This document shows, one piece after another, positions 35,743-39,759 of a DNA stretch of 64,000 bases (positions are counted from its first letter, which is position 1; every line of letters begins with the position of its first letter). Under the pieces are notes generated by a model. It was not told the origin of the DNA. It searched no databases and saw only the letters and a list, made by a program, of their open reading frames with translations. The stretch is from the NCBI GenBank assembly GCA_902790175.1, contig CADAQZ010000002.1:38138-102137 (forward strand), read 5' to 3'. The DNA is from an uncultured Eubacteriales bacterium (GTDB lineage: Bacteria; Bacillota; Clostridia; Christensenellales; Aristaeellaceae). Both the position numbers and the translations under genes were made by a program.

Positions 35743-37194
35743 TCATTCCCATTCGTAGGCCGCGATGGCCGCCTCGAGGGTGCCCTCGTCCTGCTCCGCC
35801 AGCAGGATGAAGTCAAACACCTTCTCGCTCCAGCCCGCGATGACGTTCGTGTGCGGCCCCTTGAACTGCTGCGTGCCGTAGCCCTGCAGGTCGATGGCGT
35901 GCACCCAGATGTCGCGGCCGGACTGCTGACGGTAGGCATCTGCCAGCACCTGGATGGGCTCGTTCCGGCTCCAGGGCGCCTGGTTGCACTCGTTGTCGCT
36001 GATGATGATCACGCGGTCCGCCGCGATCTTGTCGTTGGCCATCGCGACAAACGGCAGGCCGATGTTGGTGCCGCCGACGGCTTGGGCGTAGCGCGTGCAG
36101 GTCTCCAGGATGGCGGCGTGGCTGGAGAGCGGATACTTCGCGATCACGGTATTGAACGTGTAGAACAGGCTGTTTTCGCAGATGCGGTTGGCGATCAGGC
36201 CCAGCATCATGCCCACCTCGGCGCAGCGCACGCTGGAGCGCTGGCTGACGGCCGAAGACATGGAGCCGGAGTTGTCCACGGCGATGACCGTCGTGCCCGG
36301 CAGCCGGGGCAGGTTGGCCGTGGAGGCGCGCACGGCGGACTCCAGCGCGTCCAGCGCACGGCTGCCCGCCAGGTCGGCGATCTCCTTGTAGGCCGAGAGG
36401 AAGCGGAACGGCAGCTGCTTGGAGCGCAGCACGGCGCTCTCGTCCTCGATGTCGTCCTCGATGGTTTGCCACACCTTTTCGATGTTGTCGGGCTGGGCGT
36501 TTAAGATGTTGCGCAGGTTGCGCAGCAGCGCCATGTAGCCCACCTTGCCGCTGTCGATCAGCGCCTCCCAGGTCTGTTTGTTGTTGCCGTTGGCCGAGAG
36601 CTGCGTCTCCCAGGTCATGGGCGTCTTGAGCTTACCCTCCAGCAGGCGCTTCCACATCGCGCTCTGCGCCTCGTCCTTCGGCGCGGGATGGCACAGCATC
36701 AGTATGTCGCGCATGCGCACGGTCTTGCCCGAGCCCTTGTACTTGGCGAGGGTGTACTCATCGAACCCGGCGAACACGTCGTTGATGCCCTTGCGCAGCG
36801 CGTTGGGAATGGGCTTTCCGAACGTCTTGAGGTAGAACGACAGCAGCTCCGTCACGTCGTCGCCGCGCAGCGTGATGCCGCGGACGGTGCTGCGGGCGTA
36901 GGGCTTGCCCTTGGGCTCGTTCGCCAGGTACGCCGCGAGCACGTGCGCCACCGAGCGCATGTGGAACTCCCGGCGGGCGAACACGGCCAGCCGGGACACG
37001 AACTGCGCGTCTTCGCGGATCACGCGCCGGATCGTCTTTTCCATCTCCGCGCTGTTGTCGCCATAGAACTTAGACTCGTTGAAGAACGAGGTCAGCACCT
37101 GCGTGACGAGCTTTTCGCGGTCCTTCATGGCATAGGCCGCGAAGCCCTCGCGGTTGACGGTCGTCTCCGTCGGCTTTTTGTTGAACTTGCTCAT
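35743..37194 (-). CDS. rsr: Ro60-like TROVE/vWA RNA-binding protein (Rsr)
   Basis: This 483-residue protein is a bacterial Ro homologue. An N-terminal TROVE domain of HEAT-like helices covers about residues 10-290 (VREDAQFVSRLAVFARREFHMRSVAHVL-type repeats). A von Willebrand A domain follows at about 300-483 with the MIDAS motif DNSGSM. Ro forms a ring that binds misfolded or Y RNAs, and with PNPase or RNase II it shapes RNA decay and stress recovery in Deinococcus. AGGAGG lies 7 nt before the ATG at 37194. Two candidate Y RNAs lie upstream on the same strand, the typical Rsr arrangement. An HD/RyR-like gene precedes them. Confidence 0.95.
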   Translation of the reverse strand: MSKFNKKPTETTVNREGFAAYAMKDREKLVTQVLTSFFNESKFYGDNSAEMEKTIRRVIREDAQFVSRLAVFARREFHMRSVAHVLAAYLANEPKGKPYARSTVRGITLRGDDVTELLSFYLKTFGKPIPNALRKGINDVFAGFDEYTLAKYKGSGKTVRMRDILMLCHPAPKDEAQSAMWKRLLEGKLKTPMTWETQLSANGNNKQTWEALIDSGKVGYMALLRNLRNILNAQPDNIEKVWQTIEDDIEDESAVLRSKQLPFRFLSAYKEIADLAGSRALDALESAVRASTANLPRLPGTTVIAVDNSGSMSSAVSQRSSVRCAEVGMMLGLIANRICENSLFYTFNTVIAKYPLSSHAAILETCTRYAQAVGGTNIGLPFVAMANDKIAADRVIIISDNECNQAPWSRNEPIQVLADAYRQQSGRDIWVHAIDLQGYGTQQFKGPHTNVIAGWSEKVFDFILLAEQDEGTLEAAIAAYEWE

Positions 37195-37353
37195 GCTGTC
37201 GCCTCCTGTCGGCGCCGCCTTCGCGGGCAAGATCGGATGGTGAAACGCAAAACCGGTCGTAAAGAAAGGAGCCCCGCCCGCGCATGGTATGGTCCAAAGC
37301 GATGCGAGGCAAAGCTCCTCTGTTGAAACAGCCCTTCGGCCACGGCCGAAAGC

Positions 37354-37430
37354 GAAGCGGATGAAATCGGTGGGAGCCTTTTTTCACGTAAGTGAAATGG
37401 CGAAGTAACTCCCGCCTGCAATGCCGCTTC
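37354..37430 (-). ncRNA. Second Y RNA candidate, without tRNA mimic
   Basis: The minus strand has a closing helix GAAGCGG/CCGCTTC (37430-37424 with 37360-37354). Right after its 5' arm comes CATTG-N9-GTTACTTCG, the same 26-nt box and spacing as in the larger Y RNA upstream. Inner pairing is GGCGGGAG/CTCCCACC, and the apex is TTTCAC-TTAC-GTGAAA in place of the tRNA-like domain. Size is about 77 nt. The closing helix differs from that of the larger RNA by paired changes. No promoter or terminator of its own is clear, so it may be processed from read-through or from the rsr leader. Confidence 0.65.
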
Positions 37431-37438
37431 TTCGGCAT

Positions 37439-37457
37439 AAAAAGCGCGTGGCGCTTT
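37439..37457 (-). terminator. Terminator of the larger Y RNA
   Basis: On the minus strand AAAGCGC-CAC-GCGCTTT forms a 7-bp stem followed by further T residues. It lies about 14 nt after the closing helix of the tRNA-mimic RNA. Confidence 0.75.
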
Positions 37458-37470
37458 CTATCCTGACAAG

Positions 37471-37608
37471 GGGACGGATAAAATTGACCGCGGCGTGCTT
37501 TGAGGATGACGTCCTGACCGCTAGACGAACGCGCCAACGCGCGTGCGGGATTCGGACCCGCGCCTTCACCATAGGAATCGAAGTAACCGCACCCACCAAT
37601 GCCGTCCC
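37471..37608 (-). ncRNA. yrlA: Y RNA with permuted tRNA mimic (YrlA type)
   Basis: On the minus strand GGGACGG (37608-37602) pairs with CCGTCCC (37477-37471). Inside, CATTG-N9-GTTACTTCG is the putative Ro-binding part. Then comes a tRNA turned inside out: anticodon-like strand GGTGA (37570-37566), variable loop AGGC, T arm GCGGG-TCCGAAT-CCCGC (37561-37545), acceptor-like hairpin ACGCGC-GTTG-GCGCGT (37544-37529), D arm GTC...GAC with GG in its loop, and the closing strand TCATC (37509-37505). This order, with the acceptor capped by a tetraloop, is the published YrlA design. Transcription likely starts near 37626. Confidence 0.85.
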
Positions 37609-37632
37609 GCGCCGGTCGCCCGGCGCACGTTC

Positions 37633-37662
37633 ATTGTAGCACAGCCGCCGTGCCGTTGTCAA
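37633..37662 (-). promoter_or_regulatory. Y RNA promoter
   Basis: TTGACA (37662-37657) and TACAAT (37638-37633) on the minus strand are 18 bp apart, about 25 bp before the closing helix of the larger Y RNA. Confidence 0.85.
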
Positions 37663-37677
37663 CCCGAGGGCACGCCG

Positions 37678-39759
37678 TCAGGTGAGCTTGTAGATGCGCA
37701 GGCCGTCGTACTTGCGGATCAGCTTCAGCATGCTGTTGAAGGGCTGCCAATCCTTGCCCTGCTCCTTCTCCGGCAGGGACTTGTAGTGCGCCTGGACGCG
37801 CTCCTCGGTCAGCTCCCCGTCCATCATGTCCTCGTGGATGCGCATGTGCTCGCGCAGCATCTTCTGGTATTTGCCCTTGCTGGCCCCGCGCGGCACCTTC
37901 ACGTCGTTGTACTCGGTGCCGAAGCGCCAGCCCATCTCCTGGTGCTCGCGCACCCAGCGCTCGTGCTCCATCGGCGCGAACAGCTCCACCTGCTCGGGCG
38001 TGAACTCCGACAGCAGGTCGAAGTCCACCGGGCGATCGGTGTAGAAGCACTGGATGGCGTTCAGGTACTTGCTGAAGCTCTTGACCTGGTTGATGTTGTA
38101 CAGCTTGTACTCCAGCGACAGCGCCTCGAACTCGGCGTCCAGCTGCTCGGCGCTGACCTCGTCCTCGTGCCCCTCGTGGGCATAGCGCCCGTTCAGGGCG
38201 GCGGCGAAGTCGTGCATGTGCAGGAAGTTGCTGGCGGAGAGGTAGATGTGCTTCATGCCGCGGTTGGCCTTGCCGTTGGGATCGACGGTCACGGTAAGCT
38301 TCGCGCCGGAGGTGTCCACGATGCGCTCGATGTCGGCGGCAAAGCTGTTTTCGTCGTCCACCATGCTGCTGTAGGCCTTCAGCTTGGGCTGCTTGCCCTC
38401 CTTCTTGTTCGCCTTCCAGACCGCGTACTTCGCGTTGAAGGCGTCGATCTTATCCTTCTCGTCCTCGTCGTAGATGTACTCGGCGCGGATCTCGTTGCCG
38501 CTGAAGTCGAAGCGCACGCCCATCGGCTGGAGCTCCGTGCGGGAATTGCGGCCATAGGCCGTGCGGTCCCAGCACTGCAGCTCGTCGCACAGCATCAGAA
38601 GCCACGCCAGCGGGTGCGCGTTCATGGGCAGCTTCGGCTTCGTCGGCGGCTCGTCCTTGTAGAAGGCGATGGAGAACTTGTACAGGCTGTTGTGCAGCAG
38701 TATCGCCGAGAGCGCGTCCACGTGCACGGGGTTCAGTTCGTTGATGGCGGACGTTCCCTCCCCCTCCGTGTCGACGCCGATGGCGTCGGTGATCTCGCGG
38801 TAGAGGCGCACCGCGCTGAAGAAGGCGTGGTCCATGAAGCAGTTGAAGTGCTCCGGCATCTGCGGCTTTTCGTCCAGCACGCGCATCAGGTAGCCCTCGC
38901 TGAAGCCGTAGGCGTCGCCCAGCTTCTTTGTAATGTCGTAGGCCAGCAGCTCGACGATCGTGTGGAACGTCCTGCCGTAGAGCTTTTCAAAGCGCGCCTT
39001 GGCCTCGTCGCCCAGCGCCGTGAGCGCGTCCACGTTTTTGTAGGCGATCAGCAGGCTGTTCTTGCTGCGCTTCTGGTTGTTCACCTCGAAGTAGGACATC
39101 GCCTGCTCAAACGGCAATTCAAACGGATAGCCGATGTCGTGGAAAAGCGACGTGAGCCCCCAGTATTCGAGGAAGAAGTTGGCCGCGCGGCTGTCGCGCG
39201 CGTCGCCCTTGGCGTCGTAGCCGTAGAAGGCGTTGAACGCGCGGCGGTAGTTCACGTTCGTCTCGTAGATCGCCAGGCCCAGCGCGAACACGTACACCGA
39301 GTGGGAGTAGTGGTCGCGGTGCTTCATCAGGAGGGACGAGCCGTTGGTCTCGTACTCGTTGAGCAGCTCAACCATCTTCTTGGAGCGGCCGTAGCGGCCG
39401 AAGAACATCTCCAGGTAGCAGTAGTAGACGTTGTAGGCGTCATCGGCCACGCCGGAGTCGATGAAGCGCTCCAGCTCGCGCTCCAGGCACAGGCGGTCGA
39501 TGTCCATCTGCATGTTGTAGGGGATCTGGTTGGGCGAGATGCTCGCGCCCTGCCACGCGCCCGTCTCGTCCTCCCTCTTTTCGATCTTTTTGTCGAAGCG
39601 CAGCTCCTCGCAGCGGTCGTGGATGAACCGCAGGGCCGCGGTCTTCAGGTCATTGCCCTGCGCCTGCCCGCCGTAGCGATAGGGCTGGGCGGGACCGAGG
39701 TCCGCCCCGAACTCCTTGAGGTTCATCTTGCGCATCTTTTCCAACGCCGTATACGCCAT
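37678..39759 (-). CDS. HD-like protein with C-terminal RyR-like domain
   Basis: This 693-residue cytoplasmic protein has no signal or membrane segment. Histidines at about 147, 150 and 153 and the motif LFHDIGYPFE (His207-Asp208) suggest an HD-type metal phosphohydrolase core, with further histidines near 390. The C-terminus (about 595-680) has HERWVREHQEMGWRFG...LP...FNSML, resembling the RyR domain used as a nucleotide or ligand sensor in bacterial conflict systems. It could hydrolyse a nucleotide or RNA end. GGAGG is 8 nt before the ATG. It ends only 16 bp before the Y RNA promoter, and rsr is next, so it probably belongs to this module. Domain calls are by eye. Confidence 0.75.
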   Translation of the reverse strand: MAYTALEKMRKMNLKEFGADLGPAQPYRYGGQAQGNDLKTAALRFIHDRCEELRFDKKIEKREDETGAWQGASISPNQIPYNMQMDIDRLCLERELERFIDSGVADDAYNVYYCYLEMFFGRYGRSKKMVELLNEYETNGSSLLMKHRDHYSHSVYVFALGLAIYETNVNYRRAFNAFYGYDAKGDARDSRAANFFLEYWGLTSLFHDIGYPFELPFEQAMSYFEVNNQKRSKNSLLIAYKNVDALTALGDEAKARFEKLYGRTFHTIVELLAYDITKKLGDAYGFSEGYLMRVLDEKPQMPEHFNCFMDHAFFSAVRLYREITDAIGVDTEGEGTSAINELNPVHVDALSAILLHNSLYKFSIAFYKDEPPTKPKLPMNAHPLAWLLMLCDELQCWDRTAYGRNSRTELQPMGVRFDFSGNEIRAEYIYDEDEKDKIDAFNAKYAVWKANKKEGKQPKLKAYSSMVDDENSFAADIERIVDTSGAKLTVTVDPNGKANRGMKHIYLSASNFLHMHDFAAALNGRYAHEGHEDEVSAEQLDAEFEALSLEYKLYNINQVKSFSKYLNAIQCFYTDRPVDFDLLSEFTPEQVELFAPMEHERWVREHQEMGWRFGTEYNDVKVPRGASKGKYQKMLREHMRIHEDMMDGELTEERVQAHYKSLPEKEQGKDWQPFNSMLKLIRKYDGLRIYKLT

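What the first reader, a model, noticed from the sequence alone, without database searches (positions are those of the whole stretch)
35743..37662. Ro60 homologue with a circularly permuted tRNA-mimic Y RNA
The minus strand between 37570 and 37505 can be drawn as a tRNA whose 5' and 3' halves are swapped: GGTGA / AGGC / T arm GCGGG-TCCGAAT-CCCGC / ACGCGC-GTTG-GCGCGT / D arm / TCATC. It sits in a longer helix closed by GGGACGG/CCGTCCC, behind its own TTGACA-18-TACAAT promoter and before a terminator, upstream of a TROVE/vWA gene. This matches the published YrlA design (acceptor stem closed by a loop, entry from the anticodon side). A Ro-Y RNA particle with a tRNA mimic in a GC-rich gut Clostridia would extend a poorly explored RNA-decay system.
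Basis: partly seen in the sequence, partly recalled or inferred. Interest (0 to 1): 0.88.

Follow-up and report, generated by a model that had tools for sequence, protein, structure and literature searches.

The report
Clostridial Ro protein with tRNA-like Y RNAs
A gut-type bacterium carries a gene for a Ro60-type RNA-binding ring protein and, beside it, small non-coding RNAs, one of which folds like a tRNA cut open and rejoined; relatives in many Clostridia and in phages keep the same fold, and some of them even keep an anticodon arm, so a known kind of RNA particle is wider and more tRNA-like than the public model of it covers.

Summary
The gene at 37194-35743 (-) is a Ro60 orthologue (TROVE and vWA domains). 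Upstream lies a permuted tRNA-like RNA (RNA1, 37626 to about 37439) behind its own promoter. Rfam YrlA finds it only far below threshold (24.2 of 69 bits). In 391 genomes of the class, matches of 60 bits or more occur in exactly the 8 with a Ro match. Pairs covary. Modules put back into tRNA order are called tRNA by ARAGORN in 84 of 115 cases, against 8 for shuffles sent through the same parser. A subset of relatives also carries an anticodon arm, for which the Rfam consensus has no room; related cassettes sit in phage contigs, some beside tRNA arrays. Most likely function: Y RNA that ties Ro to an effector, probably PNPase (inferred). New variant of a known kind.

The parts
35743..37194 (-). 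Ro60/Rsr orthologue, 483 aa, TROVE plus vWA domain with DxSxS (MIDAS-type) motif DNSGS; AGGAGG upstream of ATG
37633..37662 (-). sigma-70-type promoter TTGACA-18-TACAAT of RNA1; TTGACA identical in L010-L013 and L015, second hexamer varies
37439..37626 (-). RNA1, likely transcript of about 188 nt: 5' hairpin, Y stem, tRNA-mimic module, terminator-like hairpin 37457-37441 with T run
   Evidence: ends inferred from promoter and hairpin
37609..37626 (-). 5' hairpin GCGCCGG-GCGA-CCGGCGC, identical in RNA1 of L010-L012 and in the orphan RNA3, changed in L015, one base shorter in L013
37602..37608 (-). 5' strand of outer Y-stem helix (GGGACGG)
37471..37477 (-). 3' strand of outer Y-stem helix (CCGTCCC)
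37579..37588 (-). 5' strand of the conserved core GGTTACTTCG (clade consensus GUUACUUCG), probable Ro-binding motif (inferred)
37478..37489 (-). 3' strand of the conserved core GGTCAATTTTAT (clade consensus CGAUUUUAU)
37505..37570 (-). tRNA-mimic module opened in the anticodon loop: anticodon stem GGTGA/TCATC, variable AGGC, T arm, acceptor strands joined by GTTG, U8-C9, D arm; position 55 is C, not U
37355..37429 (-). RNA2, second Y RNA with the same core (AGTTACTTCG ... CCGATTTCATCCG) but a plain hairpin in place of the tRNA module; fold z = -2.87
37261..37320 (-). conserved long hairpin followed by TTTCTTT between RNA2 and Ro; possible terminator or attenuator; fold z = -4.26

Best explanation
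The locus encodes a Ro ribonucleoprotein of the bacterial Rsr/Y RNA kind. RNA1 and RNA2 are Y RNAs made as small RNAs just upstream of the Ro gene (shown: sequence family, structure, co-occurrence with Ro; inferred: transcription). The lower stem with the GUUACUUCG / CGAUUUUAU core binds the Ro ring (inferred from its constancy and from Y RNAs of known function). The tRNA-like module of RNA1 is the effector end: by analogy with D. radiodurans and Salmonella it docks an effector, most probably PNPase, and gates entry of structured RNA into a Ro-PNPase decay machine (inferred). RNA2, which has no tRNA module, would occupy Ro without recruiting that effector (inferred). The orphan RNA3 would supply a further tRNA-mimic form to the same Ro (inferred).
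For: Ro identity. R2 (trained on 13 RNAs from other loci) finds RNA1 at 62.2 bits and RNA2 at 47.2 bits in the window and RNA3 at 71.8 bits on another contig (the other 12 of its 15 matches at E <= 1 score 33.6 bits or less and overlap tRNA places). Specificity: in 391 genomes of the class, matches of 60 bits or more in 8, the same 8 handles that have a Ro match at 1e-20 (stricter filters); of the 46 genomes with weaker matches only, 11 loci (L135-L145, the 51.1-bit one included) were run through ARAGORN and each holds neighbouring tRNA genes. By hand tally, 73 of 84 sources have a match at E <= 1e-4 (11 of the 73 gave rows to the model); of the 11 without, 6 have under 225 nt upstream of Ro or a cut-off Ro. 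Covariation on a sequence-only alignment: 95.8% of cells paired (70.3% shuffled), 21 of 33 pairs with double changes (16.6 shuffled), score 0.723 against 0.198. Like-for-like control of the parser: full acceptor 86 of 115 against 15.1 (maximum 25), relinearised tRNA of 115 against 8.0 (maximum 12) in 20 shuffles of the downstream part. PNPase domain in the genome. Literature passages: Rsr on the basal stem, tRNA-like domain with D, T and acceptor arms, PNPase as effector (PMC8394870, passages).
Against: No transcript, binding or decay data. Rfam YrlA misses the RNA at gathering score and misses the loci of all 15 relatives given (15 of the loci then held). RNA1 has C at position 55, so the TruB pseudouridine of published YrlA is not possible there (RNA3 has U). 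No RtcB match in the genome (87.8% complete), unlike the rsr-yrlBA-rtcBA operon. Single-sequence folding is not remarkable. The PNPase step is analogy only.
Confidence: 0.82

Rival explanations
1. Bait or sensor for tRNA-cutting enzymes: the tRNA-like modules, above all those with an anticodon arm, compete with or report on anticodon nucleases, and Ro with its partners stabilises or repairs them.
For: A subset of relatives has a 5-bp stem with 7-nt loop at a fixed place after the core: 19 of 90 distinct linkers with 5/5 pairs against 7.2 in swaps (0 of 2000 swaps as high); phage set 5 of 20 against 1.4 (4 of 2000 as high). U33 with purine 37 in 14 of 19 and 5 of 5 of these arms, against 20 of 49 and 5 of 13 linkers with under 4 pairs. 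RtcB RNA ligase in the fetched flank of 16 of 84 loci. Some phage cassettes lie beside or among tRNA genes. A competitive-inhibitor role was raised for YrlA in PMC7790460 (passage read).
Against: The window RNA1 has no clean anticodon arm. Salmonella YrlA fragments were not seen with the nuclease studied there. Many different anticodons occur. With the looser cut-off of 4 of 5 pairs the phage set is not above swaps (7 against 5.2, maximum 9), nor is its free pair clearly so (11 against 6.5, maximum 13).
Confidence: 0.12
2. Permuted tRNA gene: the RNA is processed to a working tRNA, as in red algae (recalled).
For: Relinearised RNA1 and RNA3 are called tRNA by ARAGORN.
Against: RNA1 is opened in the anticodon loop, so the anticodon is not kept together; acceptor strands are joined by short loops (3-8 nt in 72 of 88 modules), little room for end processing (inference); the flanks pair into a Y stem that covaries; occurrence follows Ro; the genome has 40 ordinary tRNA matches.
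Confidence: 0.02
3. Cis-acting leader of the Ro mRNA (autoregulation or T-box-like control) rather than free small RNAs.
For: The RNAs lie upstream of Ro in most loci; a conserved hairpin with T run stands before Ro.
Against: RNA3 lies on another contig with its own TTGACA-18-TAGAAT promoter, 5' hairpin and terminator-like hairpin; L148 has a further match on the opposite strand, and L008, L032, L049 and L077 have one downstream of Ro; RNA1 ends in its own terminator-like hairpin.
Confidence: 0.06

Closest known systems
YrlA RNA (Rfam RF02553; described in Salmonella and others, Chen et al. 2014, recalled, paper not held)
   Same: Basal Y stem plus tRNA-like module with T arm, acceptor hairpin, two bases (8-9), D arm, closed on the anticodon side; encoded next to Ro; several Y RNAs per locus in many relatives
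   Different: Core sequence GUUACUUCG / CGAUUUUAU differs from the Rfam consensus; 24.2 bits against a gathering score of 69; linker from core start to T arm mostly 25-27 nt (79 of 115 modules) and in a subset holds a complete anticodon arm, for which the consensus printed has no room; RNA1 has an extra 5' hairpin
Rsr / Ro60 (D. radiodurans 2NVO; Thermus phage phiLo 9L5Y)
   Same: TROVE plus vWA, same fold (TM by query length 0.65 and 0.69)
   Different: 19% and 25% identity in those structural alignments; a clostridial subfamily
rsr-yrlBA-rtcBA RNA repair operon (Salmonella; PMC7790460, passages)
   Same: Ro and Y RNAs together; RtcB near Ro in 16 of 84 loci
   Different: No RtcB match in the window's genome
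Permuted tRNA genes of algae (recalled)
   Same: 3' half before 5' half
   Different: Anticodon of RNA1 not kept, no processing spacer, Y stem added

Membership tests
YrlA, Rfam RF02553 | Reaches the curated gathering score (69 bits) | tested here: not met
   24.2 bits, E 0.0071 in 521 nt; no YrlA hit at gathering score in 15 relatives' loci nor in the own genome at E 0.001
YrlA, Rfam RF02553 | Full-length match to the model on the right strand | tested here: met
   Model positions 1-114 of 114, best of 4227 families
YrlA-kind RNA (by architecture) | tRNA-like domain with T, acceptor and D arms, entered from the anticodon side | tested here: met
YrlA-kind RNA (by architecture) | Encoded near a Ro orthologue and in genomes that have one | tested here: met
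   RNA3 is not near Ro but in the same genome
YrlA-kind RNA (by architecture) | U55 as TruB target | tested here: not met
   C at 55 in RNA1 and in RNA1 of L010 and L012; U in RNA3 and in 89 of 92 modules
YrlA-kind RNA (by architecture) | Bound by Rsr and by PNPase | not testable with these tools
   Only the presence of a PNPase domain was tested
Ro60 / Rsr | TROVE and Ro60 vWA domains above cut-off | tested here: met
   PF05731 115 bits (cut-off 23), PF25045 41.5 bits (27.7); Foldseek 9kop E 3.3e-23
Ro60 / Rsr | Binds Y RNA and single-stranded RNA ends | not testable with these tools
   -
rsr-yrl-rtcBA repair operon | RtcB present | tested here: not met
   PF01139: no match in the 2.43-Mb assembly, 87.8% complete
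Permuted tRNA gene | Intact anticodon and processing spacer | tested here: not met
   RNA1 opened in the anticodon loop, 4-nt acceptor loop

The most novel reading that the evidence does not exclude
In Clostridia and their phages the Y RNA has taken up a whole tRNA, in part of the family with its anticodon arm, by permutation at two different points (inside the anticodon loop, or between positions 26 and 27), and serves as a bait or sensor for anticodon nucleases: Ro holds the bait, RtcB or other partners deal with the cut product, and phages carry the cassette beside tRNA genes as part of the tRNA arms race.
Probability: 0.13. Interest if true: 0.85.

Novelty: new variant of a known kind. Interest (0 to 1): 0.5.

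Why it matters
It shows that Ro-Y RNA particles occur through a wide range of Clostridia and neighbours where the public RNA model does not see them at its threshold, gives a covariance model and a core motif to find them, and shows that in part of the family the tRNA mimicry goes further than the D, T and acceptor arms. Paralogues with and without the tRNA module in one genome make the question of what the module recruits directly testable. Phage-borne copies link the particle to phage biology, and commensal Ro orthologues have been tied to lupus autoimmunity (said in PMC8394870, passage read).

Tried and rejected
Single-sequence folding as proof: z only -1.5 and -0.81, not used as evidence. 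Rfam alone: sub-threshold. ARAGORN's call of a tRNA at 37630-37536 in native order has a 4-nt anticodon and does not fit the structure kept by relatives; taken as a false call. Recent capture of a host tRNA: the window module is 64% identical to the closest of 30 distinct own-genome tRNAs (64-67% for RNA1 of the six clade members; 30 of the 40 tRNA matches were fetched), with no clear parent. First pair count and model R1 used wrong alignment columns (gaps overlooked); both are void and were replaced. First viral scan with the single protein found nothing; the alignment query found 24 loci. Looser anticodon-arm test (4 of 5 pairs): bacteria 41 of 90 against 29.7 (maximum 38 of 1000), phages 7 of 20 against 5.2 (maximum 9), so only the strict test carries the claim for phages. 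Biased controls found on re-reading: the acceptor was chosen as best over many loop lengths while the swaps were not (65 of 93 against 1.5; 88 of 115 against 18.4 swapped, 0 shuffled, 0 native), and the D loop was chosen with help of the anticodon pairs (16 of 88 against 2.7); one search repeats these with one parser for data and control and is the one to trust. Selection effects: A3 holds 13 of the 21 RNAs listed, which were picked for full acceptor and D stems and at least 4 of 5 anticodon-arm pairs, so the share of paired cells is raised; T-loop letters and G53-C61 were part of the search pattern, and U8 and a GG in the D loop had a bonus. In one search the strands were typed by hand, L012's acceptor was cut to 6 pairs, and L013 was left out of the 5'-hairpin count because its 3' strand is one base shorter. 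Five loci that repeat contigs already fetched (L033, L034, L037, L038, L046) were dropped from counts; one search kept the best 80 of 89. Near-duplicates (such as L016/L017, L019/L028, L152/L153, L166/L167) were kept in locus counts. Papers not held: Chen et al. 2013 and 2014, Sim et al. 2020, so I could not check whether Clostridia or anticodon arms are in their lists; a search for Y RNA, TROVE and Clostridi* listed two papers, of which I read passages of one and saw the other only in the listing.
Full report
What is there. On the minus strand, upstream of a 483-aa gene (37194-35743), lie two small structured elements. RNA1 starts behind a TTGACA-18-TACAAT promoter (37662-37633) and runs from about 37626 through a 5' hairpin, a Y stem closed by GGGACGG/CCGTCCC, a tRNA-like module (37570-37505) and a hairpin with T run ending near 37439. 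RNA2 (about 37429-37355) has the same core, GTTACTTCG ... CCGATTTCATCCG, but a plain hairpin where RNA1 has the module. A further conserved hairpin with a T run stands at 37320-37261 before the gene (z = -4.26).

The RNA against Rfam. Over the whole window no Y RNA reaches gathering score. On the 521-nt stretch alone YrlA is the best of 4227 families, full length, right strand, 24.2 bits against a gathering score of 69. In the loci of 15 relatives YrlA again does not reach it, and a search of the own genome at E 0.001 gives none. So by Rfam's own bar it is not a member, although it has the architecture.

Relatives. Ro is sparse: at E 1e-20, 2 of 297 genomes of the order and 8 of 391 of the class, the window's own included in both. 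A scan of named genomes gave 89 relatives, best 80 kept, 38-87% identical, among them rumen and gut Clostridia, Clostridium, Acetivibrio, Blautia and Coriobacteria. With the window and the earlier loci and without five repeats, 84 loci were examined. Upstream of Ro, tandem elements with the core GUUACUUCG ... CGAUUUUAUCC are visible by eye in many. A parser found 115 modules (core followed by a T arm) in 67 of 84 loci.

Tests. (a) Alignment A3 of 13 RNAs (of 21 listed), none from the window's clade, aligned by sequence only: with the structure Y stem, inner stem, anticodon arm, T, acceptor and D arms, 95.8% of cells pair (70.3% in shuffles, 37-50% when slid), 21 of 33 pairs have changes on both sides (16.6 in shuffles, 1 of 500 as high), covariation 0.723 against 0.198. 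An earlier count and model with wrong columns are void. (b) Model R2 from A3, without the anticodon arm, finds RNA1 (62.2 bits, E 5.3e-13) and RNA2 (47.2 bits, 2.2e-9) in the window; the third hit, 14 bits, is the D arm of a real tRNA. (c) In the own genome R2 finds a third RNA, RNA3, on contig C1 at 120991-120862 (71.8 bits); the other 12 of 15 matches at E <= 1 score 33.6 bits or less and overlap tRNA places. RNA3 has a TTGACA-18-TAGAAT promoter, the identical 5' hairpin and a terminator-like hairpin, and lies between an ORF that reads as 3-methyladenine DNA glycosylase I and one that reads as an ABC permease (both recalled from the sequence, not searched). (d) In 391 genomes of the class 54 have a match at E <= 1e-5, but those of 60 bits or more are in 8, the same 8 handles that have Ro (one search used stricter filters). 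The next match has 51.1 bits; of the 46 genomes with weaker matches only, 11 loci (L135-L145) were run through ARAGORN and each holds neighbouring tRNA genes. (e) By hand tally, 73 of 84 sources have a match at E <= 1e-4 (11 of the 73 gave rows to the model); none in L025, L056, L062, L067, L069 (only a weaker opposite-strand hit), L075, L076, L084, L085, L087, L088. (f) Modules put back into tRNA order: ARAGORN of 115, native order 0, shuffled 0, D halves swapped between modules 18.4 on average (each module tried in two openings, an ACCA tail added to all). With one parser for data and control: 84 of 115 against 8.0 (maximum 12 in 20 shuffles of the downstream part), full acceptor helix 86 of 115 against 15.1 (maximum 25). 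RNA1 and RNA3 are both called, 0 of 2000 shuffles of RNA1. (g) In RNA1 of six genomes plus RNA3 all T, D and (six-pair) acceptor pairs are kept in 7 of 7, the anticodon stem in all but one cell, with double changes in acceptor, anticodon, T, D and outer helices. (h) tRNA marks: A9 70, A14 80, R15 87, A21 80, Y48 89 of 92 modules.

Two ways of opening the tRNA. In the window's clade and some others the strand before the variable loop pairs with the strand after the D arm (15 of 92 modules with 5/5 pairs against 2.5 in swaps, maximum 7): the tRNA is opened in the anticodon loop, as in Rfam YrlA. In others the linker between core and T arm (25-27 nt from the core's start in 79 of 115 modules) holds a 5-bp stem and 7-nt loop, UUCGN-7-N'CGAR, such as UUCGC-CUUUUAA-GCGAG (L004) or UUCAC-CUGUUAA-GUGAG (L036). 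Distinct linkers with 5/5 pairs: 19 of 90 against 7.2 (maximum 16 of 2000 swaps); phage set 5 of 20 against 1.4 (4 of 2000 as high). At the one freely varying pair, Watson-Crick matches are 50 of 90 against 23.4 (maximum 36), in phages 11 of 20 against 6.5 (maximum 13). The 5/5 arms have U33 with purine 37 in 14 of 19 and 5 of 5, against 20 of 49 and 5 of 13 linkers with under 4 pairs. This is a subset, not the rule, and the window's RNA1 is of the first type, although its strand GTGAA can also pair with UUCGA in 4 of 5 places.

Phages. With the alignment query 24 viral contigs hold a relative of Ro (46-68% identity, two of them only a short piece), 20 of 24 with R2 matches at E <= 1e-6 (hand tally; two near-duplicate pairs). 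In L162 Y RNAs alternate with tRNA genes (10 calls); in L149 (14 tRNAs) and L163 (9) they stand directly beside the array; L014, binned as Bacteroidales, has 13 tRNAs, a row of Y RNAs and an integrase. More distant Ro relatives are in 91 of 50,697 phage and 63 of 72,556 plasmid records. Phage Y RNAs as such are in print (PMC12282133 passage).

How it works. Shown: family, structure, link with Ro. Inferred: transcription, Ro binding by the core, effector docking by the module. A PNPase domain is in the genome, RtcB is not found. In print for YrlA: Rsr on the basal stem, tRNA-like domain with D, T and acceptor arms, PNPase as effector (PMC8394870, passages; PMC4726728, passages); Ro with RtcB in an operon and a possible inhibitor of anticodon nuclease (PMC7790460, passages). 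I could not read Chen et al. 2014, which reported Y RNAs in over 250 species (recalled); Clostridia may be among them.

Verdict. Real, well supported, and of a known kind by architecture; a divergent branch that the public model misses at its threshold, with a more complete tRNA mimicry in part of the branch. Interest moderate.

Noticed in passing
G000:C1:120862-120991 (L120:1501-1630, minus): Orphan third Y RNA (RNA3) on another contig with the same 5' hairpin as RNA1, own promoter and canonical T loop; beside an ORF that reads as 3-methyladenine DNA glycosylase I (recalled, not searched).
   Followed up: partly
window 37261-37320 (-): Strong hairpin with T run between RNA2 and the Ro start codon, kept in L010, L011, L012 and L015, with helix-keeping changes in L012 (one mismatch); possible attenuator of Ro.
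   Followed up: partly
L149, L162, L163 (IMG/VR contigs) and L014: Ro-Y RNA cassettes beside or interleaved with 9-14 tRNA genes; L014 has a phage-type integrase although its bin is called Bacteroidales.
   Followed up: partly
window 37678-39759 (-): 693-aa protein upstream with a sub-threshold RyR domain match near its C-terminus; by eye its end is kept in L010 but not in L011 or L015; no PHROG match.
   Followed up: partly
L025:1-1313: CRISPR-like array with 61-nt period (19 listed copies) upstream of a Ro locus in which R2 finds no Y RNA.
   Followed up: partly
window:37536-37630, L011:3542-3638, L034:3701-3768, L130:1497-1570, L151:214-283: Rfam tRNA or ARAGORN calls that fall on Y RNAs: annotation pipelines may list such Y RNAs as tRNAs.
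   Followed up: partly
L008, L027, L032, L040, L042-L045, L047-L050, L054, L077, L084, L088: RtcB RNA ligase near Ro in 16 of 84 loci, 13 of them titled Clostridium or Oceanirhabdus (L008 by its named twin L038); in L008, L032, L049 and L077 a further Y RNA lies between Ro and RtcB.
   Followed up: partly
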